Source: Solirubrobacterales bacterium
GTDB taxonomy: Bacteria; Actinomycetota; Thermoleophilia; Solirubrobacterales; 70-9
Assembly: GCA_021155855.1 (NCBI GenBank)
Contig: JAJNAZ010000001.1
Location: 248,001-312,000 of the forward strand
Reading direction: 5' to 3'
Length of the DNA: 64,000 nucleotides
In this document: positions 40,401 through 55,435 of the stretch, in pieces
How positions within the stretch are numbered: the stretch's first letter is position 1
Layout of the letters: the number at the start of each line of letters is the position of its first letter
Made by a program: the position numbers and the translations under genes
The notes under the pieces: model-generated
The model's input: only the letters and a program-made list of their open reading frames with translations
The model's database searches: none
Told to the model about the DNA's origin: nothing

Positions 40401-40853
40401 TCGGTCGAGCTGCTCCAGCGCGCCTTCGAGATCGCCGAACAGGTCGGGCGCTCCGAGGTCGCGTTCGAGTCACTGCACTGGCTCGCCGCGGCGCTGCGCG
40501 ACCGCGGCGATTACGCGGACGCCGATCAGACCCTCGCCCGGGCGCTCGACCTGTGCGAGCGCGCCGGGCTCGTCGCCCAGTCGGTCGAGGCGACCGCGAC
40601 CCGCGCCGTCAACCTGGCGCTCTGGGGCAAGGCCGAGCCCGCGCGCGACGTCGCCGAGGAGGCCGCGAGCCTGGCCGAGCGGCTCCGCTATCCCGTCGGT
40701 CACGCCGCCAGCCTCGAGGCTCGCGGTGCCGCCTCGGTCGACCCCGATGAGGGCGCGAAGCTGCTCGCCGAGGCCGAAGCCACCTGGGCGGGACTGGACC
40801 GCCCGATCGACGCCGAGCGCTGCGCGGCGCTGGCGGTCCGGGACCGTTCCTAG
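37416..40853 (+). CDS. Zinc-ribbon, class III cyclase, AAA ATPase and TPR signalling protein
   Basis: The 1145-residue product begins with two zinc ribbons (C3, C6, C17, C20 and C28, C31, C42, C45). A class III cyclase domain follows (about 70-245) with metal D78 and D122, K118 and D192 for purine recognition, and N195 and R199 for catalysis. A STAND/AAA-type ATPase comes next (Walker A GQAGVGKSR near 295; DIHWADE near 437). The C-terminal half is TPR-like repeats (about 650-1130). It is cytoplasmic. This architecture is common among actinobacterial and proteobacterial cyclase sensors. The GTG start fits the CPGCG at residue 3. What it binds is unknown. Confidence 0.9.
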   Translation: MNCPGCGTENPERARFCMSCGTALPAPCRACGAENPAEAKFCIECGSPLGGEEARPAQPPGKEPLPEERRTATVIFADLSGYTAVSERLDPERMKSLIDRALRRLGEEVERHGGTIDKYIGDNVMGVFGAPVAHEDDPERAVRAGLAMQMAMEEINDRIAADIGANFALRVGINSGEVLAGQVGDGYTVIGDPVNVAARLQAAANPSTVIVGETTHRLTRAAIEYVELEPLTLKGKSEPVPAWEAVRAVVRGRAPRRPRAATPLVGREDESDLLLSLFERVVSEQRPHLVTVLGQAGVGKSRLLRELALKVGELESPAAVRLGSCPAYGAGLAYWALAEVVRGTFEIVDTDDVSAAWRKLERGIASLVAEADTEEPPERIAAALGRPLGIEPPSRDGADSSEHEDPQQMRDRLFSAVRTLIEAAGRREPMIFAVEDIHWADEGMLDLIEYLARWTRGPVLLLCLARDELLDRRPGWGGGRINATTITLEPLAREQVRALVTTLMPDPQSGLAARGLVDQVAERSGGNPLFAEEMVNRIVEGGTTDTEALPETVHSVLAARLDSLPRHERLVLQAASVVGQTFWEGSVDPGDASIELTAALASLQEKDLVVPTAGSRLAGEREYAFKHVLIRDVAYSTLPKAVRARRHAEVGGFISARAADRSEGVVAMVAEHYGRAASLGASADLEPGELDRIEERALEALEAAGDASAALYSNREAQGHYESALGLERRLDAASRARIAEKLGDVALRLGRVDRAVRTWEQALEYHRGEEDLARVGDLHRKIGAGLWHKGDREGSIEHYQRGIDLLKDGPPCIELVRLYEEAASLYMHTGDNMLAIYASEKALRLAERLGEAAAASRAHGIFGRVFGRIGDSERARENLERSVELARESDPAEAVRALNALGYHLEISEADYGHARGAYGAALDLALETGDLPSQVEIHAALAQLAIYSGDWETAEREAEESGMLAEREGLAGKLCFPYSMRGVLRWHEGDLDESVELLQRAFEIAEQVGRSEVAFESLHWLAAALRDRGDYADADQTLARALDLCERAGLVAQSVEATATRAVNLALWGKAEPARDVAEEAASLAERLRYPVGHAASLEARGAASVDPDEGAKLLAEAEATWAGLDRPIDAERCAALAVRDRS

Positions 40854-41362
40854 GCGAGGCCCAGGGCCTCGTACTCGCGCAGGAATCCCTCGAACAGCCG
40901 CTTGTGGCCCTGCTCGTCGTGGAGGATCTCGATCACCATGTCCTGGGTGACCGGGTCGATCGCATCGGTTTCCTCGACGATCCGGCTGTAGTGCTCGATC
41001 GCCCCCTGCTCGGCCTCGATCACACCGCGGATCACATGCACGATGTCGACCTGGTCGTCGGGGGGCTGCAGGAACGTCTGCTCCGCCGCGAAGGCGAGCG
41101 AGCCCGGGACGACCCCATAGAGCTCCTTGATCCGCGAGGCGAACTGCTGCGCGTGCCCGAGCTCCTCTTGGATGTCCTGCTCCAGCGACTCCTTGATCTC
41201 CTGGGCGCGGACCCCGTCCGGGTTGACGGCGTTCGCGATGTAGCTCATCACCGTCTCGATCTCCATCCAGTAGGCCTTGGTCAGCAGCTCGATCACGTGC
41301 TCGCGCCGCTCGGAGTTCCCCTCCGCCAGGATGTCCATGCTGCTCGTCGCCGGATCGCTCAC
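40850..41362 (-). CDS. Ferritin-like (bacterioferritin/DPS-type) protein
   Basis: The 170-residue four-helix bundle has diiron-type ligands E36, E67xxH70 (EELGHAQQ), E118 and E150xxH153 (DEQGHKRLF). The length and ligand spacing fit a ferritin-like protein related to bacterioferritin or rubrerythrin. No heme methionine is assigned. It may store or oxidise iron, or act as a peroxide scavenger. GTG start. The stop is convergent with the preceding cyclase gene, overlapping by four bases. Confidence 0.88.
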   Translation of the reverse strand: MSDPATSSMDILAEGNSERREHVIELLTKAYWMEIETVMSYIANAVNPDGVRAQEIKESLEQDIQEELGHAQQFASRIKELYGVVPGSLAFAAEQTFLQPPDDQVDIVHVIRGVIEAEQGAIEHYSRIVEETDAIDPVTQDMVIEILHDEQGHKRLFEGFLREYEALGLA

Positions 41363-46306: not shown

Positions 46307-47491
46307 CTAGCCCGTGGTGCTCTCGGCGACCGGCGCGGGCGTCCCCTCCCGCCATGAGTAGGCGTACGCCGGGTCGTCGAGCGCGAGCGCGAATTCGGTC
46401 AGTCGCAGGGGACGAAAGGTGTCCCACATCACCGCCAGCTCCTCCGTCCGGCGCATGCCGAGAGCTTTCTCGACCAGGCCGGGCTGCGGGCCATGCGGTA
46501 GGCCCGAGGGGTGAACGGTGACCGAGCCCACCTCGATCCCCTTGCGACTGCCGAACTCACCCGAGACGTAGTAGATGACCTCCTCCGACTGCAGGTTGGA
46601 GTGGTGGTACGGGAGCGGCACCGCCTCCGGGTCGTAGTCGAGCTCGCGCGGGCAGAACGAGCAGATGACGAAGTTCGGCCCCTGGAAGGTCTGATGCACC
46701 GGGGGCGGCAGGTGCAGGCGCCCCGTCCGCGGCTCGAAGTCGTGCACGTTGAAGGTGTACGGGTACACGTAGCCGTCCCAGCCGACGACGTCGAACGGGT
46801 GGTAGTCGAGCAGGTAGCGCTGCAGGCCGCCGCGGACGCGCACCGTGAGATCGAAGTCGCCGCTCTCGCGATGGGTCTCGAGCTCGGCCGGCGGATGGAA
46901 GTCCCGCTGCGAGAAGGGCGCCGACTCGAGCAGCTGGCCGTAGCGGTTGCGGTAGCGGTTCGGGGTCTCGATCTCCCCCGGGGTGTGAAAGACGAGCCAG
47001 GTCTGCGGGGTCTGGTCGAGCGCGAACCGGTAGGTGGTCCCGCGGGGGACGACGACGTAGTCGTGCTCGCGGAACGGCAACGAGCCGAACACGGTCTCGA
47101 GCGCTCCCGATCCCTCGACGACGAAGAACACCTCGTCTCCCTCGCCGTCGCGGAAGAAGCACTCGGTCTCGGTGGTCGGACGGCAGAGCGAGACCTCGAT
47201 GTCGGAGTTCCACATCAAGCAGCGGCGACCGCTGATCGGGTCACCGCCCGGATCGGTCGGACCGGTGGCCAGATGGCGATGGACGTGCGCGTCGGGGACC
47301 CACTCGAGGTGCTCGATCGGGGTGAACTCGCGCGCCTCCGCGATCCGGCACGGCGACTCGAGGTGGTAGAGGATCGACTCGTTGCCGGAAAAGCCCTCGT
47401 AGCCCATCACCTCCTCGACCAGCAGGCGGCCATTGGTCCGGAACTGGGTGTGGCGCTTTCTGGGAACGTCGCCGAGCTTGTGGTACCGCAT
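46307..47491 (-). CDS. hmgA: Homogentisate 1,2-dioxygenase
   Basis: The enzyme opens homogentisate to maleylacetoacetate in tyrosine and phenylalanine breakdown. The 394-residue product has the double-cupin homogentisate dioxygenase fold, with the ligand region LPYHHSNLQSEEVIYYVSG and HPSGLPHGPQPG near 305-345. ATG 47491 overlaps the hppD stop (TGATG). It follows hppD in the pathway order. At 394 residues it is slightly shorter than many homologues (about 430). Confidence 0.93.
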   Translation of the reverse strand: MRYHKLGDVPRKRHTQFRTNGRLLVEEVMGYEGFSGNESILYHLESPCRIAEAREFTPIEHLEWVPDAHVHRHLATGPTDPGGDPISGRRCLMWNSDIEVSLCRPTTETECFFRDGEGDEVFFVVEGSGALETVFGSLPFREHDYVVVPRGTTYRFALDQTPQTWLVFHTPGEIETPNRYRNRYGQLLESAPFSQRDFHPPAELETHRESGDFDLTVRVRGGLQRYLLDYHPFDVVGWDGYVYPYTFNVHDFEPRTGRLHLPPPVHQTFQGPNFVICSFCPRELDYDPEAVPLPYHHSNLQSEEVIYYVSGEFGSRKGIEVGSVTVHPSGLPHGPQPGLVEKALGMRRTEELAVMWDTFRPLRLTEFALALDDPAYAYSWREGTPAPVAESTTG

Positions 47492-48612
47492 CAGAGGTTG
47501 CCCCTCCTCTCCTGCTCTCTCTCGATCGCCTCGAACAGTGCCTTGAAATTCCCCTCGCCGAAGCCGCGGGCGCCGTGTCGCTCGATCACCTCGAGGAAGA
47601 CCGTGGGCCGGTCGCCGATCGTCTGGGTGAAGATCTGCAGCAGGTAGCCCTCGTCGTCACGATCGGCGAGGATGCCGAGCTCGCGCAGATCGGCGAGGTC
47701 CTCGTCGATCTCACCGATCCGGCCCGGCAGCTCCTCGTAGTAGCTCTCAGGGGTGGAGAGGAAACGCACCCCGCGATCCCGCAGCTCCTTCACCGTGGCG
47801 ACGATGTCGGTGGTCGCCAGAGCGATGTGCTGGGCCCCTGGGCCGCCGTAGTACTCGAGATACTCCTCGATCTGGGACTTGCGCTTGCCCTCGGCGGGCT
47901 CGTTGATCGGGAACTTGACCCGGCCCTTGCCGTCGGTCATCACCTTCGACATCAGCGCCGAGTACTCGGTGCCGATGTCCTCGTCGGTGAAATGGATCAT
48001 CTCGGTCATCCCGAAGACCCGCTCGTAGTAGCCGACCCACTCGTCGAGCCGGCCGAGCTCGACGTTGCCGACGACGTGGTCGATGCCGACGAAAATCCCC
48101 GCGTCCTCGGCCGGCTCCGCGGCGGCGAACCCGGGCAGGAACGCGCCCTCATAGCCGTTGCGCTCGACGAAGGTGTGCAAGGTGTCGCCGTAGGTGGCGA
48201 TCGTCGCCATCCGCACCGTGCCGTCGTCGTCGCTCTCCTCCCACGGCTCGCGCACGCCGAGGGCGCCGTGCTGGACGGCGTAGCGGTAGGCGTGCTCGGC
48301 GTCGGGGACCGACAGCGCGATCACCCGCACGCCGTCGCCGTGCGCGGCGACGTGGCGGGCGATGTCGCTGGTGCCGAGCAGTGGTGCGGTGAGCACGAAG
48401 CGCACCCGCCCCTGCTCGACCACGTGCGAGGCGCGATCGCGGACCCCCGTCTCCAGCCCCGCGTAGGCGGAGCGGCGAAAGCCGAGTGCGTGGGTGAACC
48501 AGTGCGCCGCGTGGGTCGCATTCCCCACGTACAGCTCGACATGGTCGATGCCGTGCAGCGGCATCTCGTCGGCTGCCGTCGCGTCCGGTTTCGCGGCCGT
48601 CTCGATCGCCAT
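47491..48612 (-). CDS. hppD: 4-hydroxyphenylpyruvate dioxygenase
   Basis: The enzyme makes homogentisate from 4-hydroxyphenylpyruvate. The 373-residue product has two vicinal-oxygen-chelate modules and the iron ligands in GIDHVVGNV (His), GAQHIALAT (His) and FLEVIERHG (Glu). ATG 48612 follows GGAGAGGAG, a strong ribosome site. It is the first gene of the operon and divergent from an Lrp/AsnC regulator 105 bases away, the most likely controller. Confidence 0.96.
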   Translation of the reverse strand: MAIETAAKPDATAADEMPLHGIDHVELYVGNATHAAHWFTHALGFRRSAYAGLETGVRDRASHVVEQGRVRFVLTAPLLGTSDIARHVAAHGDGVRVIALSVPDAEHAYRYAVQHGALGVREPWEESDDDGTVRMATIATYGDTLHTFVERNGYEGAFLPGFAAAEPAEDAGIFVGIDHVVGNVELGRLDEWVGYYERVFGMTEMIHFTDEDIGTEYSALMSKVMTDGKGRVKFPINEPAEGKRKSQIEEYLEYYGGPGAQHIALATTDIVATVKELRDRGVRFLSTPESYYEELPGRIGEIDEDLADLRELGILADRDDEGYLLQIFTQTIGDRPTVFLEVIERHGARGFGEGNFKALFEAIEREQERRGNL

Positions 48613-48650
48613 CTCGCTCCTCTCCTTGCCTGATCCAGCGTTGCCCTTTA

Positions 48651-48717: not shown

Positions 48718-49176
48718 ATGGACGGAATCGACCACCGAATCGTTGCGCTGCTGCGGGAGAACGCCCGGCGCTCGTTCCAGGACATCGGCGGACGCGTCGC
48801 GCTGTCCGCTCCGGCGGTCAAGCGGCGGGTGGACCGGCTCGAGCGCGACGGCGTCATCCGGGGCTACTCGGCCAACGTCGACCCGTCCGCGATCGGCTGG
48901 AACACGCACGCCTTCGTCGAGCTCTTCTGCGAGGGAAGGATGTCGGGCGAGGAGGTTCGGACCGCGGTCGGCGAGCACCCCGAGGTCGAGGCCGCGTACA
49001 CGATCGCCGGCGGGCCGAGCGCGATCCTGCACGTGCGCGCCTCCGACACGCAACACCTGGAGCAGGCGCTGGAGCGGATCCGCGAGACCGAGGGCGTGAT
49101 CCGGACCGAGACCCAGGTCGTGCTCTCGACCCTGTTCGAGCGCCCGGTGGCGAACGGCAAGGGACCACAGACGTGA
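48718..49176 (+). CDS. Lrp/AsnC family transcriptional regulator
   Basis: The 152-residue product has an N-terminal HTH (about 3-50: IDHRIVALLRENARRSFQDI, VALSAPAVKRRVDRL) and a C-terminal RAM/ligand domain (about 65-140) with GGPSAILHVRA. Lrp-type proteins sense amino acids. It is divergent from hppD, so tyrosine or a keto acid is a likely ligand (inference). ATG start at 48718. Confidence 0.92.
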   Translation: MDGIDHRIVALLRENARRSFQDIGGRVALSAPAVKRRVDRLERDGVIRGYSANVDPSAIGWNTHAFVELFCEGRMSGEEVRTAVGEHPEVEAAYTIAGGPSAILHVRASDTQHLEQALERIRETEGVIRTETQVVLSTLFERPVANGKGPQT

Positions 49177-49282: not shown

Positions 49283-50692
49283 TTGTTAGATCACGCCGCC
49301 GACCTGAAGCTCCAGCACCTGGTCGAGCTCTCGAAGCTGGGCGACGGCTGTGCCGCGATCGAGGGCGAGATCGAGGAGTGGCTCGCCGACCACGACGTCG
49401 TCTTCGCCGAGCGCACGATCCCGTTCGTGCTCATGCCCCACTTCGTCTCACCCGGTCAGGCGCGCCGGGTGCGCCGTGCGGTCGAGTGCCTGTGCCGCGT
49501 CCTCGACCGTTTCTGCGACGCCTATCCGACGGATGAGCGCCTGCGCTCCGAGCTCGACCTGCCCTCGTTCGAGGATTCGCTCGTCCGCGTCGACCCCGGC
49601 TACGACCGGCCGCTGCGAATCTGCCGCCTGGACGCCTTTCTGATCGGCGACCGGGTGCGCTTCCTCGAGTTCAACGCCGACTCTCCCGCCGGCATCGGCT
49701 ACACCGACGTGCTCGCCGAGGGACTGCGGAGGGCGATCACCCTCCCCAGCGTCGAGGCCGAGTTCGAGACCTCCTATGCGCCGATGCTGCCGCTGCTGAT
49801 CGACACCCTCGGCGACGCCTACGCGCAGCTTCGCGCCACGCGCCGCCGCCAGCTTCCCGAGCGGCCCCGCATGGCGCTGGTCGATCTCCCTCGGAGCCCG
49901 TCTGTGCCCGAGTTCCGGATCGTCTGTGGCGCCGCCGGCGAGGCGGGCATCGACGCGGTCTGGACGACCACCGAGGAGCTCGACTACGACGGGTCGGCGC
50001 TGCGGGCGAGCGGCGAGCGCGTCGACCTCGTCTATCGCCGGGCGCTCGTCGACGACCTCGCCGAGGGCGACCTGACCGCCGCCTATCGCGACGGGCGCGT
50101 CTGCGTCGTCAACCCGCCGCGCGCCCGGGTCGCCAACAACAAGAAGCTCTTCGCCCTGCTCGGCGACCCCCGATTCGCCGATTTGGTCTCCTCCGGGGAG
50201 GCGGAGCTGATCGCCGAGACGGTGCCCTGGACACGGATCCTGCGCGAGGGTCGCGCCACCTATGGTGAGTGGACGATCGACCTGCTCGACTTCACCTCCG
50301 ACAACCGCGAGCGGCTGGTGCTCAAGCCGGCCTCGGAGTACGGCGGCCACGGGGTCGCGCTCGGGATCGAGACCGAGCAGGCCGAGTGGGACCGGATCAT
50401 CGGCGAGCACGCCGAGCGCGCCGACTTCATCGTCCAGGAATACGTCCCGATCCCCGAGGAGATGTTCCCGACGATCGAGGACGGCCATGTGCAGATGCGG
50501 CTCAAGCGCTTCAACATCAACCCGTTCGCGCTCGGCGGGCGCTACGCCGGGATGATCACCCGGATCTCCGATCAGGCGGTGATCAACGTCTCCGCCGGTG
50601 GCGGCCTCTTGCCGAGCGTCGTCGGCCGCCACCGCCGCAGGCTGATGGCCGAGGAACCGGGGGATCGAGAGGAGGCCCATGCTCAGCCATGA
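49283..50692 (+). CDS. Glutathionylspermidine-synthetase-like ATP-grasp ligase
   Basis: The 469-residue product resembles the C-terminal synthetase half of glutathionylspermidine synthetase: LDAFLIGDRVRFLEFNADSP (acidic Mg site near 117-135), VVNPPRARVANNKKLFALL near 275, LVLKPASEYGGHGVALG near 346 and FIVQEYVPIPEEMFP near 385. These are ATP-grasp motifs for joining an amine and a carboxylate. There is no amidase domain. The TTG start follows AGGAGG at 10 bases. It overlaps the next gene by 14 bases, so the two are co-translated. Substrate unknown. Confidence 0.85.
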   Translation: MLDHAADLKLQHLVELSKLGDGCAAIEGEIEEWLADHDVVFAERTIPFVLMPHFVSPGQARRVRRAVECLCRVLDRFCDAYPTDERLRSELDLPSFEDSLVRVDPGYDRPLRICRLDAFLIGDRVRFLEFNADSPAGIGYTDVLAEGLRRAITLPSVEAEFETSYAPMLPLLIDTLGDAYAQLRATRRRQLPERPRMALVDLPRSPSVPEFRIVCGAAGEAGIDAVWTTTEELDYDGSALRASGERVDLVYRRALVDDLAEGDLTAAYRDGRVCVVNPPRARVANNKKLFALLGDPRFADLVSSGEAELIAETVPWTRILREGRATYGEWTIDLLDFTSDNRERLVLKPASEYGGHGVALGIETEQAEWDRIIGEHAERADFIVQEYVPIPEEMFPTIEDGHVQMRLKRFNINPFALGGRYAGMITRISDQAVINVSAGGGLLPSVVGRHRRRLMAEEPGDREEAHAQP

Positions 50693-51854
50693 ACCGCTCC
50701 GACGCGGTTACGACGTCGACGACAACGCGATCAGGTTCTCGAACTACTTTCACGTCCTTCGCGAGCTCGTGCACTTCTCCAACGGCTGGCTGCCGCTGGC
50801 GCCCGAGTTCGAGACCAAGTACCGCCTCGGCGATCATTTGCACGACGACGCGCGCGCCATCTCGAAGGTCAAGCGGCGCCTGTATGAGCTCCGTCACCCG
50901 AGCGAGTACCCCGGCGCGCCGGGCCCCGAGCTGAACGCGTTTCTCGACCGGATCGCCGGCGCCGGGTCGCCGGAGGAACACCTGGCGATCGCCTACGGCG
51001 AGGCAAAGCCGGCACTGGTCGAGGCGATCGAGGTTCACTTGGGCACGCTCGACCCGGTCACCGACGAGCCCTCACTGCGACTGCTGACACAGCTCCACCA
51101 ACGCCAGGCCCACCACATCGCCGAGCTCGCTCCGGCGCCCCGCTCGCGCAACCAGCAGCGAGCGGCGACCAAGCTCGGGTCGCTCCCGATCGACCTCAAG
51201 GCTCCCGCGCGCGAATTGCGCCTCCTCCCCCCGCTCGAGGAGCCCGCCCGTGACGACTTCGTCGAGGTGACCGCCGACGGCGATCCGTTCCTGTCGGACG
51301 AGCTCTACGTCAACGACCCGGATGAGAACCACGTTCCGGTCGAGCCCGAGGAGCAGCGCCACTTCTTCCACGGGCTGATGGACGCGGAGCTGTGCGCCGC
51401 CGAGCTGATGGCGCGCAACTCGCACGAGCACCCGGAGATGCCCTGGGACTTCCACGTCGACATGGCGCGCCAGACCTGGGACGAGGTCCGCCACGCGCGC
51501 GTGCACGAGATCCTGATGCCGACCGAGCTCGGCTGCGCCTGGGGCGACTACCCGATCGGCTTCGGCTATTTCCGGTCGATCTACGAGCGCGATCTGCTCG
51601 ACCGCCTGGCGCTGTTCAACTCGACCTCCGAGCAGAAGGCGATGTGGCGCCACTCACACCGGCGCAAGATCCTGGTCGACCGCGGCCAGGCGACGATCGC
51701 GAAGGTGTTCGACTACCTGCTCGCCGACGAGGTCCCGCACGTCCACAACGGCGTTCGCTGGGGCACCTATCTGATCGACGGCGACGAGAGGGCCTACCGG
51801 GCGTACGTGCGCGAGCTGCGGGAAGGCCTCGACCGGACCGGGGCCCCGAGTTGA
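50679..51854 (+). CDS. Two-part ferritin-like protein, DUF455-type C-terminus
   Basis: The 391-residue product has a helical N-terminal half (about 1-155, with WLPLAPEFETKYRLGDHLHDD and RQAHHIAEL) and a C-terminal ferritin-like DUF455-type half. The latter carries diiron-type ligands E237, E242, E269xxH272 (DEVRHARVH) and a second DEVPHVHNGVRWG near 345. The ATG at 50679 follows GAGAGGAGG and overlaps the ATP-grasp stop. Ferritin-like enzymes of this kind oxidise or hydroxylate substrates. The pair suggests a ligation-plus-oxidation pathway; the product is not known. Confidence 0.82.
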   Translation: MLSHEPLRRGYDVDDNAIRFSNYFHVLRELVHFSNGWLPLAPEFETKYRLGDHLHDDARAISKVKRRLYELRHPSEYPGAPGPELNAFLDRIAGAGSPEEHLAIAYGEAKPALVEAIEVHLGTLDPVTDEPSLRLLTQLHQRQAHHIAELAPAPRSRNQQRAATKLGSLPIDLKAPARELRLLPPLEEPARDDFVEVTADGDPFLSDELYVNDPDENHVPVEPEEQRHFFHGLMDAELCAAELMARNSHEHPEMPWDFHVDMARQTWDEVRHARVHEILMPTELGCAWGDYPIGFGYFRSIYERDLLDRLALFNSTSEQKAMWRHSHRRKILVDRGQATIAKVFDYLLADEVPHVHNGVRWGTYLIDGDERAYRAYVRELREGLDRTGAPS

Positions 51855-53019: not shown

Positions 53020-53868
53020 CTACTCCACCGGCGTCTCCAGCCGCCCGAGCCCGTCTGCCTCGAGCACCACCAGGTCGCCGGGCTCGAGCCAGCGGCCCTC
53101 GCCGCGGTCGGGCGCCGGCAGCGGGCCGAGCTCGAGCAGGCAGCCGCCGGCGAGCGTGCCCGAGCCAAGCACGTCGCCGGCGCGAAGCCGCGTATCGCGG
53201 GCCGCGTGGGCGACGATCTCCTGCCAGCCGAAGTGCTTCTCGGATGCGTCCGCGGAGGCGACCTGCTCGCCGTTGACGAACACGCGGGCGCCGATCCGCA
53301 GCCGGCCGTCCTCATAGGGCAGCTCGTCCGGGGTGACTAGCCACGGCCCGAGGCTGGTGCCGAAGTCCTTCGCCTTCGCCGGCCCGAGGCCGACGGTTCG
53401 CTCGCCGGCCTGCAGGTCCCGCGCCGACCAGTCGTTCATCAGCGTGAACCCGGCGATCTCCGGCTCGCCCGCGGCGACGCCGATGATCGCCGCGATCTCG
53501 AGCTCGAAATCGAGCAGCGCGGTCGCCTGCGGACGCCGCAGCGGCTCGCCGGGGCCGAGGATCGAGGCGGGGTTGGAGAAGTAGAAGGCGGGCGCCTCGT
53601 ACCAGTGCGCGGCGATCTCGCCCCCGCGCAGCCGCGCCGCGGCCGCGACGTGGCCCTCGTAGGCGTAGAAGTCACGCACGCTCGGCGGCTCGGGCACCGG
53701 CGCCAGTGGCCGCAATTCGCCGGGCTCGAACTGCTCGCCGGCGCGATCACGCCCCTCGCCCGCGAGCCAGGCGATCATCGAGGCGACCTCGAGCCGCTGG
53801 ATGCGATCGTTGACCAGCTCGCCGACGAGCCGCTCGCCCCCCGGGGTCTCGAAACTGCCGAGCCGCAT
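53020..53868 (-). CDS. Fumarylacetoacetate hydrolase family protein
   Basis: The 282-residue product has the FAH fold with metal ligands in DFELEIAAIIGV and NDWSARDLQ, and the motif PVPEPPSVRDFYAYEGHV. In this context it is likely the last step of tyrosine catabolism (fumarylacetoacetate to fumarate and acetoacetate), though the FAH superfamily also has hydratases and isomerases. ATG 53868 is chosen; longer frames are shadows. It is divergent from the M32 peptidase by 61 bases. Confidence 0.85.
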   Translation of the reverse strand: MRLGSFETPGGERLVGELVNDRIQRLEVASMIAWLAGEGRDRAGEQFEPGELRPLAPVPEPPSVRDFYAYEGHVAAAARLRGGEIAAHWYEAPAFYFSNPASILGPGEPLRRPQATALLDFELEIAAIIGVAAGEPEIAGFTLMNDWSARDLQAGERTVGLGPAKAKDFGTSLGPWLVTPDELPYEDGRLRIGARVFVNGEQVASADASEKHFGWQEIVAHAARDTRLRAGDVLGSGTLAGGCLLELGPLPAPDRGEGRWLEPGDLVVLEADGLGRLETPVE

Positions 53869-53929
53869 CGCGGCCAAGGTTCGCACAGGGCGCGGCCCGT
53901 CCGTGACCGGCCAGGTAGGTTGGCCAGCG

Positions 53930-55435
53930 GTGAAAGCGACGCTCGAGCCCCTGCTGACCGCACTCCACGAGATCTCCGATCTCGGCCGGGCGCGCGCCCT
54001 ACTCGCCTGGGACGAGCGCACGAAGATGCCCCTGGGCGGCGCCGAGGTCCGCGCCGAGCAGATCGCGACCCTGACCCGGCTGCGACATCTGCGCCTCTGC
54101 TCCGACGAGCTCGGCGAGCTGCTCGATCGGGCCGCCGCCGGCCTCGACTCCGCCCCCCGGGACTCGTTCGAGGCCAGCCTCGTCCGGGTCACGCGGCGCG
54201 AATGGGAGAAGGCGCGCCGCGTACCCGCCGAGCTGCGCGCCGAGACCGCGCGCGTCAGCTCGATCGCCGAACGCGCCTGGGAGGGAGCGCGCGAGCGTTC
54301 CGACTTCGCCGCCTTCCTCCCCCACCTGGAGCGGATGCTCGAGCTCAAGCGCCGCTACGTCGAATGCTTCGATGCCGAGCGCCCCTACGATCCGCTGCTC
54401 GACGACTTCGAGCCCGGGATGCGCACGGCGGAGGTCGAGCCGGTGCTGGCGCGGGTGCGCGACGGGACCGTCGCTCTGTTGGCGGAGATCACCGAACGGC
54501 CACAGACCGTCGACGCCTCGTGCCTGTACGGCGAGTTCCCGGTCGAGCGCCAGGCCGAGCTCGCGCGCGAGCTCGCTCGGCGGCTGCCGCTCGAGTCAGG
54601 CGCCTGGCGCATCGACGAGACCGTGCACCCGTTCGCGACCGGGATCGCGATCTCGGACCTGCGGATCACGACGCGTTTCGACCCCGGCTACGTCGGCACC
54701 TCGCTCTGGGCCGTGATCCACGAGATCGGGCACGCCCTCTATCAGAACGGGATCGCATCCGAGCTCGAGCGGACGCCCCTGTGCCGCTCGGTCTCGCTCG
54801 GCTTCGACGAGTCGCAGAGCAGGATGTGGGAGAACTGGATCGGCCGCGGGCGCCCCTTCCTCGCCCATATCCACCCGCTGCTCACCGAGAGGTTCCCGGA
54901 GCGCTTCGCCGGCATCGACCGCGAGGCGCTCTACCGGGCCGCCAACCGCGTGCAGCCGTCGCTCGTTCGGATCGAGGCCGACGAGGTCACCTACAACCTC
55001 CACATCGTGCTGCGGTTCGAGCTCGAGCTCGAGCTGTTCGAGGGCGGGCTGGTCGCGGCCGAGCTACCCGAGGCGTGGGCGCAGCGGATGTCCGAGTACC
55101 TCGGGATCGAGGTCCCCGACGACGCCTCGGGGGTCCTCCAGGACGCGCACTGGTCGTCGGGGTCGTTCGGCTACTTCCCCACCTACACGCTGGGCAACGT
55201 GATCGCGGCCCAGCTGTGGGAGATCGTGCGCGCGGAGCTGCCCGACCTCGATGATCGCCTCGCCACCGGCGAGCTGACGCCGCTGCGCGACTTCCTCGGC
55301 GAGCGGCTCTACCGGCACGGGGGCAAGCTCGAGCCCGCGGAGATGATCGAGCGTCTCGCCGGCGGGCCGCTCGACCCCGAGCCGCTGCTTTGTCATCTGC
55401 GCCAAAAGTTCGGCGAGATCTACGAGCTCGCCTGA
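53930..55435 (+). CDS. M32 family metallocarboxypeptidase
   Basis: The product (501 residues from GTG 53930) is a thermostable-carboxypeptidase-1-like enzyme with the zinc motif H264-E-I-G-H268 and the M32 signatures GFDESQSRMWENWIGR and ASGVLQDAHWSSGSFGYFPTYTLG (shown here as ESQSRMWEN and HWSSGSFGYFPTYTLG). It removes C-terminal residues from peptides. The length matches the family. Convergent cspA follows across a strong terminator. Confidence 0.95.
   Translation: MKATLEPLLTALHEISDLGRARALLAWDERTKMPLGGAEVRAEQIATLTRLRHLRLCSDELGELLDRAAAGLDSAPRDSFEASLVRVTRREWEKARRVPAELRAETARVSSIAERAWEGARERSDFAAFLPHLERMLELKRRYVECFDAERPYDPLLDDFEPGMRTAEVEPVLARVRDGTVALLAEITERPQTVDASCLYGEFPVERQAELARELARRLPLESGAWRIDETVHPFATGIAISDLRITTRFDPGYVGTSLWAVIHEIGHALYQNGIASELERTPLCRSVSLGFDESQSRMWENWIGRGRPFLAHIHPLLTERFPERFAGIDREALYRAANRVQPSLVRIEADEVTYNLHIVLRFELELELFEGGLVAAELPEAWAQRMSEYLGIEVPDDASGVLQDAHWSSGSFGYFPTYTLGNVIAAQLWEIVRAELPDLDDRLATGELTPLRDFLGERLYRHGGKLEPAEMIERLAGGPLDPEPLLCHLRQKFGEIYELA

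What the first reader, a model, noticed from the sequence alone, without database searches (positions are those of the whole stretch)
49283..51854. ATP-grasp ligase plus two-part ferritin-like (DUF455-type) protein: candidate new biosynthetic cassette
A glutathionylspermidine-synthetase-like ATP-grasp enzyme without its amidase partner domain overlaps by 14 bases a 391-residue protein with a helical N-terminal half and a DUF455-type ferritin-like half with diiron-type ligands. Both keep recognisable active-site residues. Actinobacteria are not known to make glutathionylspermidine, so the substrate is probably different. Ligation and oxidation in one translational unit suggest a peptide-like or polyamine-like small molecule that is joined and then oxidised. 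No precursor peptide or exporter is clearly attached, although an AI-2E transporter lies just downstream on the other strand.
Basis: partly seen in the sequence, partly recalled or inferred. Interest (0 to 1): 0.65.

Follow-up and report, generated by a model that had tools for sequence, protein, structure and literature searches.

The report
Ligase–iron oxidase pair beside tyrosine genes
Two neighbouring bacterial genes, a peptide-bond-type ligase and a double ferritin-like iron protein, always occur together in one soil-bacterial class and travel with tyrosine-breakdown genes, so they probably perform a joined ligation and oxidation step that nobody has characterised.

Summary
A circularly permuted ATP-grasp ligase (49283-50692) overlaps by 14 bases a 391-aa protein whose C-half is DUF455. 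The pair is not chance: of 399 genomes of its class, the same nine carry close homologues of both genes, close together, once in swapped order. All six expected iron ligands of the C-half are kept. The "helical N-half" is a second, homologous ferritin-like domain that has lost its ligands; in other Actinomycetota the two halves are separate adjacent genes. The ligase keeps the Mg/ATP residues of glutathionylspermidine synthetase, but its predicted fold is nearest to eukaryotic-type glutathione synthetase, YgiC/YjfC and the fungal E-64 ligase.

New here: the cassette belongs to a block with homogentisate dioxygenase, hydroxyphenylpyruvate dioxygenase and an Lrp regulator. A same-genus genome has the empty site, flanks intact, whole block missing. 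Two other genomes carry the cassette in the same tyrosine locus; in the rest it lies elsewhere or contigs break. Most likely it joins an acid to an amine and oxidises substrate or product with O2, probably on something derived from tyrosine. The substrate is unknown. AI-2E belongs to the old backbone and is not its exporter.

The parts
49283..50692 (+). Circularly permuted ATP-grasp ligase (P0001, 469 aa); invariant R115, D117, E129, N131, K287, K348
   Evidence: Pfam PF14403 2e-8; hhalign to E. coli GspS E 5.6e-5 aligning R316/D318/E330/N332/K498; Foldseek to glutathione synthetases E 1e-13
50679..51854 (+). Tandem ferritin-like protein (P0002, 391 aa), overlaps the ligase gene by 14 nt
   Evidence: two four-helix regions in the model (low confidence)
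50727..51155 (+). N-half of P0002 (about residues 17-159): homologous but degenerate ferritin-like domain; positions equivalent to the C-half ligands read L27, D57, A60, K110, Q143, H146
   Evidence: hhalign N-half vs C-half Prob 86%, E 4.7e-6; ligand table
51339..51818 (+). C-half of P0002 (residues 221-380): DUF455 domain with diiron-type ligands E237, E269, H272, E318, E351, H354
   Evidence: Pfam PF04305 5e-18; ligand conservation across 31 sequences
48718..49176 (+). Lrp/AsnC-family regulator directly upstream, same strand; in G055 its stop codon overlaps the ligase start
   Evidence: Pfam AsnC_trans_reg 1e-16; sequence of G055 locus
47491..48633 (-). 4-hydroxyphenylpyruvate dioxygenase-like gene, part of the same gained/lost block
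   Evidence: Pfam Glyoxalase 9e-23 and HPPD N-terminal 6e-8; absent from the empty site
46307..47491 (-). Homogentisate 1,2-dioxygenase (short form), part of the same gained/lost block
   Evidence: Pfam HgmA_N 3e-9 and HgmA_C 2e-4; absent from the empty site
53020..54000 (-). Fumarylacetoacetate hydrolase-family gene, near the block and also missing from G001 (5' end approximate)
   Evidence: Pfam FAA_hydrolase 3e-44; no match in L159
46249..51919 (.). Extent of the block absent from the same-genus genome G001 (152 bp there against about 5.67 kb here)
   Evidence: blastn of the G001 site against the window

Best explanation
A two-gene ligase-oxidase cassette. The ATP-grasp enzyme activates a carboxylate as an acyl phosphate and joins it to an amine; the tandem ferritin-like protein, with one working diiron centre in its C-half and a degenerate partner domain in its N-half, oxidises the substrate or the product with O2. 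It is carried in and probably serves a branch of tyrosine/homogentisate metabolism in at least part of its range. Shown: the pair is real, restricted to Thermoleophilia in the data searched, keeps its catalytic residues, and was gained or lost together with homogentisate dioxygenase, hydroxyphenylpyruvate dioxygenase and an Lrp regulator in the window's genus. Inferred: that both proteins are catalytically active, that they act on one molecule, and that this molecule derives from tyrosine.
For: Co-occurrence: close homologues of both genes in exactly the same 9 of 399 class genomes, near each other in every locus, gene overlap or near-contact in five loci, and survival of a swapped gene order (L017). 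One genome, G280, is split across contigs at the ligase. Ligase active-site residues match GspS; its fold matches amide-forming enzymes including YjfC, YgiC and Cp1B. Complete diiron-type ligand set. Tyrosine link: empty site in G001; same HGO-HPD-Lrp-ligase-DUF455-FAH order in G055 and a variant in G398; HGO in 8 of 9 cassette genomes against 96 of 398 overall, naive Fisher p 7e-5. Precedent: ATP-grasp ligases occur with diiron oxidases in small-peptide clusters (PMC13185094).
Against: No substrate, product or transporter was identified. No biochemical activity for DUF455 turned up in the papers searched. In the four genomes of family f12 the pair sits beside guaA, not the tyrosine genes, and in G389 and L015 beside a pyridoxamine-oxidase-like gene and an amidase. 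Most genomes with HGO lack the cassette, so it is not needed for tyrosine breakdown. The P0002 model is poor (pLDDT 56). The ligand role of the residues is inferred from sequence.
Confidence: 0.45

Rival explanations
1. Iron or peroxide protection for the Fe(II) dioxygenases HPD and HGO: P0002 stores or delivers iron or removes H2O2, and the ligase makes a small chelator or thiol that helps it.
For: P0002 is ferritin-like; HPD and HGO are non-haem Fe(II) enzymes (general knowledge) and lie in the same block.
Against: Most HGO-carrying genomes lack the cassette; in family f12 the pair sits beside guaA and away from HGO; the best structural match to bacterioferritin is weak (E 0.34).
Confidence: 0.15
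2. Protein, peptide or RNA modification: the ligase tags a macromolecule, as proposed for ATP-grasp enzymes of the Anbu operons, and the ferritin-like enzyme hydroxylates it, as MiaE does a tRNA base.
For: The ligase's closest solved sequence relative is 3N6X, a putative glutathionylspermidine synthase of the circularly permuted group; an ATP-grasp protein of the Anbu operon releases phosphate from ATP (PMC6376114). MiaE analogy is from general knowledge.
Against: No Anbu, alpha-E, transglutaminase or precursor-peptide gene was seen near the loci examined (ORF inspection, only part checked against Pfam); patchy distribution (9 of 399) is unlike a housekeeping modification.
Confidence: 0.15
3. 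The two proteins work together but in nucleotide or general metabolism, and the tyrosine locus is only a convenient landing place in three genomes.
For: Family f12 cassettes follow guaB-like and guaA genes, with the ligase start overlapping the guaA stop (L018, L021); neighbourhoods differ between clades.
Against: Co-gain or co-loss with HGO-HPD-Lrp in the window's genus; all three f3 cassette genomes are among the six HGO-positive members of 26 sampled.
Confidence: 0.2

Closest known systems
YgiC / YjfC (E. coli peptide-spermidine ligases) and GspS
   Same: Circularly permuted ATP-grasp fold; same R-x-D ... E-x-N motif and lysine as GspS
   Different: No DUF1190 partner gene, no amidase domain, weak sequence similarity (YgiC E 0.03), paired with a diiron-type protein
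Cp1B-type ATP-grasp ligases of E-64 biosynthesis
   Same: Predicted fold match (9cjn); pathway pairs an oxygenase with an ATP-grasp amide ligase (PMC12568646)
   Different: Fungal; its oxygenase is Fe/alpha-ketoglutarate dependent; about 14% identity
HDO plus ATP-grasp clusters such as mangotoxin
   Same: A diiron oxidase beside amino-acid ligases (PMC13185094)
   Different: Haem-oxygenase-fold oxidase there; here a DUF455 ferritin-like one, and a circularly permuted ligase
DUF455 (PF04305)
   Same: C-half matches well above cut-off with all ligands
   Different: Family function unknown; here fused to a second, degenerate ferritin-like domain and paired with a ligase
Anbu-operon ATP-grasp group
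   Same: Similar ATP-grasp type (3N6X; grouping from general knowledge)
   Different: No Anbu, alpha-E or transglutaminase genes seen nearby

Membership tests
CP_ATPgrasp_2 (PF14403) | Score above the curated cut-off | tested here: met
   33.9 against 32 bits; marginal, and the match covers residues 260-407
GSP_synth (PF03738) | Score above the curated cut-off | tested here: not met
   26.2 against 29.3 bits
GSP_synth (PF03738) | Mg/ATP residues R316, D318, E330, N332, K498 of E. coli GspS | tested here: met
   Aligned with R115, D117, E129, N131, K287; numbers counted on the alignment; invariant in 10 relatives. Their catalytic role is from general knowledge
GSP_synth (PF03738) | Makes glutathionylspermidine | not testable with these tools
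   needs enzyme assay
DUF455 (PF04305) | Score above the curated cut-off | tested here: met
   66.1 against 34.3 bits
Ferritin-like diiron enzymes | E, ExxH, E, ExxH ligand pattern within a four-helix bundle | tested here: met
   C-half E237, E269/H272, E318, E351/H354 in all close relatives where sequence is present; the N-half does not meet it
Ferritin-like diiron enzymes | Binds two iron atoms and reacts with O2 | not testable with these tools
   needs protein chemistry
Anbu operon | Anbu, alpha-E and transglutaminase-like genes alongside | tested here: not met
   not seen among the neighbours, from ORF inspection and partial Pfam checks
Anti-phage defence system | Match to a PADLOC model | tested here: not met
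   no match for either protein

The most novel reading that the evidence does not exclude
The cassette makes a previously unknown metabolite from tyrosine, 4-hydroxyphenylpyruvate or homogentisate by ATP-grasp amide formation and diiron oxidation, which would give the DUF455 family its first function, with the N-half as a catalytically dead partner domain evolved from a two-subunit enzyme.
Probability: 0.22. Interest if true: 0.72.

Novelty: new variant of a known kind. Interest (0 to 1): 0.5.

Why it matters
DUF455 is a ferritin-like family for which no activity turned up in the papers searched. A tight, exclusive partnership with an amide ligase and a physical link to tyrosine breakdown give a concrete, testable starting point for its chemistry. 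The tandem architecture, one domain with its ligands and one degenerate, and split into two genes elsewhere, is also a good case for studying how diiron enzymes evolve partner subunits.

Tried and rejected
(1) Cassette as replacement for maleylacetoacetate isomerase: rejected, since no genome of 18 tested, with or without the cassette, passes the MaiA cut-off. (2) AI-2E as exporter of the product: rejected, it is next to threonine dehydratase in the cassette-free G001. (3) Ligase next to DUF455 in wider Actinomycetota: not found; distant DUF455 relatives have no ligase homologue in the surrounding stretch held, and the ligase's next-closest relatives (29-36% identity) have no DUF455 neighbour. 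(4) Plasmid-borne copies: only a weak DUF455 hit in one Geobacillus plasmid. (5) Defence system: no PADLOC match. (6) Literature: no paper on point found joining ATP-grasp and homogentisate, or circularly permuted ATP-grasp and ferritin-like. (7) The 2009 amidoligase survey (Iyer et al.) is not in the library, so a mention of this pair there cannot be excluded.

Full report
What is there. The ligase start is TTG at 49283 with AGGAGG about nine bases upstream, and relatives align from the same position. The stop of the ligase (50692) lies 14 bases inside the second gene (start 50679). Pfam puts the ligase in CP_ATPgrasp_2, marginally above cut-off, and below cut-off in GSP_synth; the second protein is DUF455 over residues 221-380 only. 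NCBIfam gives only sub-cut-off glutathione synthetase matches.

Is the pairing real? Close homologues of the DUF455 protein were found in 9 of 399 class genomes and close homologues of the ligase (E below 1e-100) in exactly the same nine. A separate scan of 84,980 species returned eight loci, all named Thermoleophilia, Thermoleophilaceae or Solirubrobacter(ales). That scan uses exact peptide patterns, so it cannot exclude diverged copies elsewhere. In every locus the ligase is close by, with overlap or near-contact in five of the eight measured, gaps of 73 and 489 bp in two, and a 2.1 kb gap holding opposite-strand ORFs in L021. In L017 the order is swapped, which argues that the association outlives rearrangement. 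G280 is a draft in which the ligase is split over two contigs. Identities among the eight pairs correlate (r 0.86), but relatedness alone would give this too. The next-closest ligases, 29-36% identical, have no DUF455 neighbour.

The ligase. The only notable solved sequence relative is 3N6X, a putative glutathionylspermidine synthase. A profile comparison with E. coli GspS (E 5.6e-5) aligns R115, D117, E129, N131 and K287 with R316, D318, E330, N332 and K498 (numbering counted on the alignment); all are invariant in ten relatives. The model has moderate confidence (pLDDT 68). Its best solved matches are eukaryotic-type glutathione and homoglutathione synthetases, then YjfC, the E-64 ligase Cp1B, YgiC and GspS. 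A stand-alone ligase of this fold is therefore ordinary: YgiC and YjfC are peptide-spermidine ligases (PMC12568646). What acid and amine it joins cannot be told from sequence.

The ferritin-like protein. C-half residues E237, E269, H272, E351 and H354 are kept in all relatives with sequence at those positions, and E318 in all close ones and most distant ones. This is the E, ExxH, E, ExxH pattern of diiron proteins. The N-half, unmatched by Pfam, is homologous to the C-half (hhalign Prob 86%, E 4.7e-6). In the cassette clade its equivalent positions read L27, D57, A60 (or G/S), K110, Q143 (E in one) and H146, so no canonical diiron site is left. Distant N-halves keep more of the set, for example E27, D57, H60, E143 and H146 in L050 and L056. 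In other Actinomycetota the two halves are separate neighbouring genes (L101, L103, L104, L105, L107), so the window's protein is best read as a fusion of a two-subunit protein whose first half has decayed. The AlphaFold model is poor (pLDDT 56); its weak bacterioferritin matches (E 0.34) agree with the sequence but prove nothing by themselves.

The surroundings. Upstream lie Lrp (+), HPD (-) and HGO (-); downstream AI-2E (-) and FAH (-). In the same-genus genome G001 the window's backbone is colinear (MFS, M32, AI-2E, threonine dehydratase, NUDIX, two small ORFs, desaturase, PucR) but HGO, HPD, Lrp, ligase, DUF455 and FAH are missing. At the junction, 152 bp in G001 replace about 5.67 kb in the window. 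The block was thus gained here or lost there as a unit; the direction is not proven. G055 has HGO-HPD-Lrp-ligase-DUF455-FAH in the same order without AI-2E, with the Lrp stop overlapping the ligase start (ATGATCG); G398 has HGO-HPD-Lrp-FAH-DUF455-ligase; G296 has the same tyrosine locus without the cassette. HGO occurs in 96 of 398 class genomes but in 8 of 9 with the cassette, the ninth being 64% complete. The naive Fisher p is 7e-5, or 4e-4 by genus; these ignore relatedness. Within family f3 all three cassette genomes are among the six HGO-positive of 26 sampled (hand-calculated p about 0.008). Within f1, G000 is the only genome with a hit for either the DUF455 protein or HGO. Within f12 there is no association to test.

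What limits the tyrosine reading. In f12 the pair follows guaB-like and guaA genes, and in L015 and L020/G389 it precedes a pyridoxamine-oxidase-like gene, with an amidase gene further on; in the f12 genomes, G389 and G280 HGO lies on another contig where it was found. Most HGO genomes manage without the cassette. It is therefore an accessory, not a step of the pathway. Replacement of maleylacetoacetate isomerase was tested and rejected.

Mechanism and comparison. The most economical reading is amide formation through an acyl-phosphate intermediate plus O2-dependent diiron oxidation on the same molecule. Known analogues pair an ATP-grasp ligase with an iron oxygenase: mangotoxin and at least 25 clusters with an HDO and an ATP-grasp ligase (PMC13185094), and E-64 (PMC12568646). 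Those use different oxidase folds. No paper was found that describes this pair, within an open-licence library only. Novelty is therefore rated as a new variant of a known kind, with moderate interest because the chemistry is unproven.

Noticed in passing
L101:8099-9529, L103:8561-10038, L104:8465-9951, L105:8727-10336, L107:7319-9099: In several other Actinomycetota the N-half and C-half of the DUF455 protein are two adjacent genes; in L101, L103 and L108 a sigma-70-like gene starting LxKERVERDEEDLVRLYLTDIGQY (or close) lies just downstream.
   Followed up: partly
L049, L051, L053, L054 (two-domain DUF455 genes): Distant fused relatives lie near large glycoside hydrolase genes (GH106-type in L051) and sugar-transporter-like genes, and in L118 and L119 beside nucleoside-hydrolase-like genes (by ORF inspection), suggesting a role in sugar catabolism for that branch.
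   Followed up: partly
L018, L019, L021, L022: In one family the cassette directly follows guaB-like and guaA genes, with the ligase start overlapping the guaA stop in L018 and L021.
   Followed up: no
18 genomes of the window's class: No genome tested passes the MaiA (maleylacetoacetate isomerase) cut-off although most have homogentisate dioxygenase; how they isomerise maleylacetoacetate is unclear.
   Followed up: no
window 40850-41362, - strand: A separate small ferritin-like protein (170 aa, by eye) lies about 8 kb upstream of the cassette; it has an 80% identical homologue in L162 (G004) near AI-2E and NUDIX genes, without the cassette.
   Followed up: no
L111, L112, L113: A different group of circularly permuted ATP-grasp ligases (about 32% identical) is followed by a conserved FMN-dependent dehydrogenase gene, possibly another ligase-oxidase pair.
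   Followed up: partly
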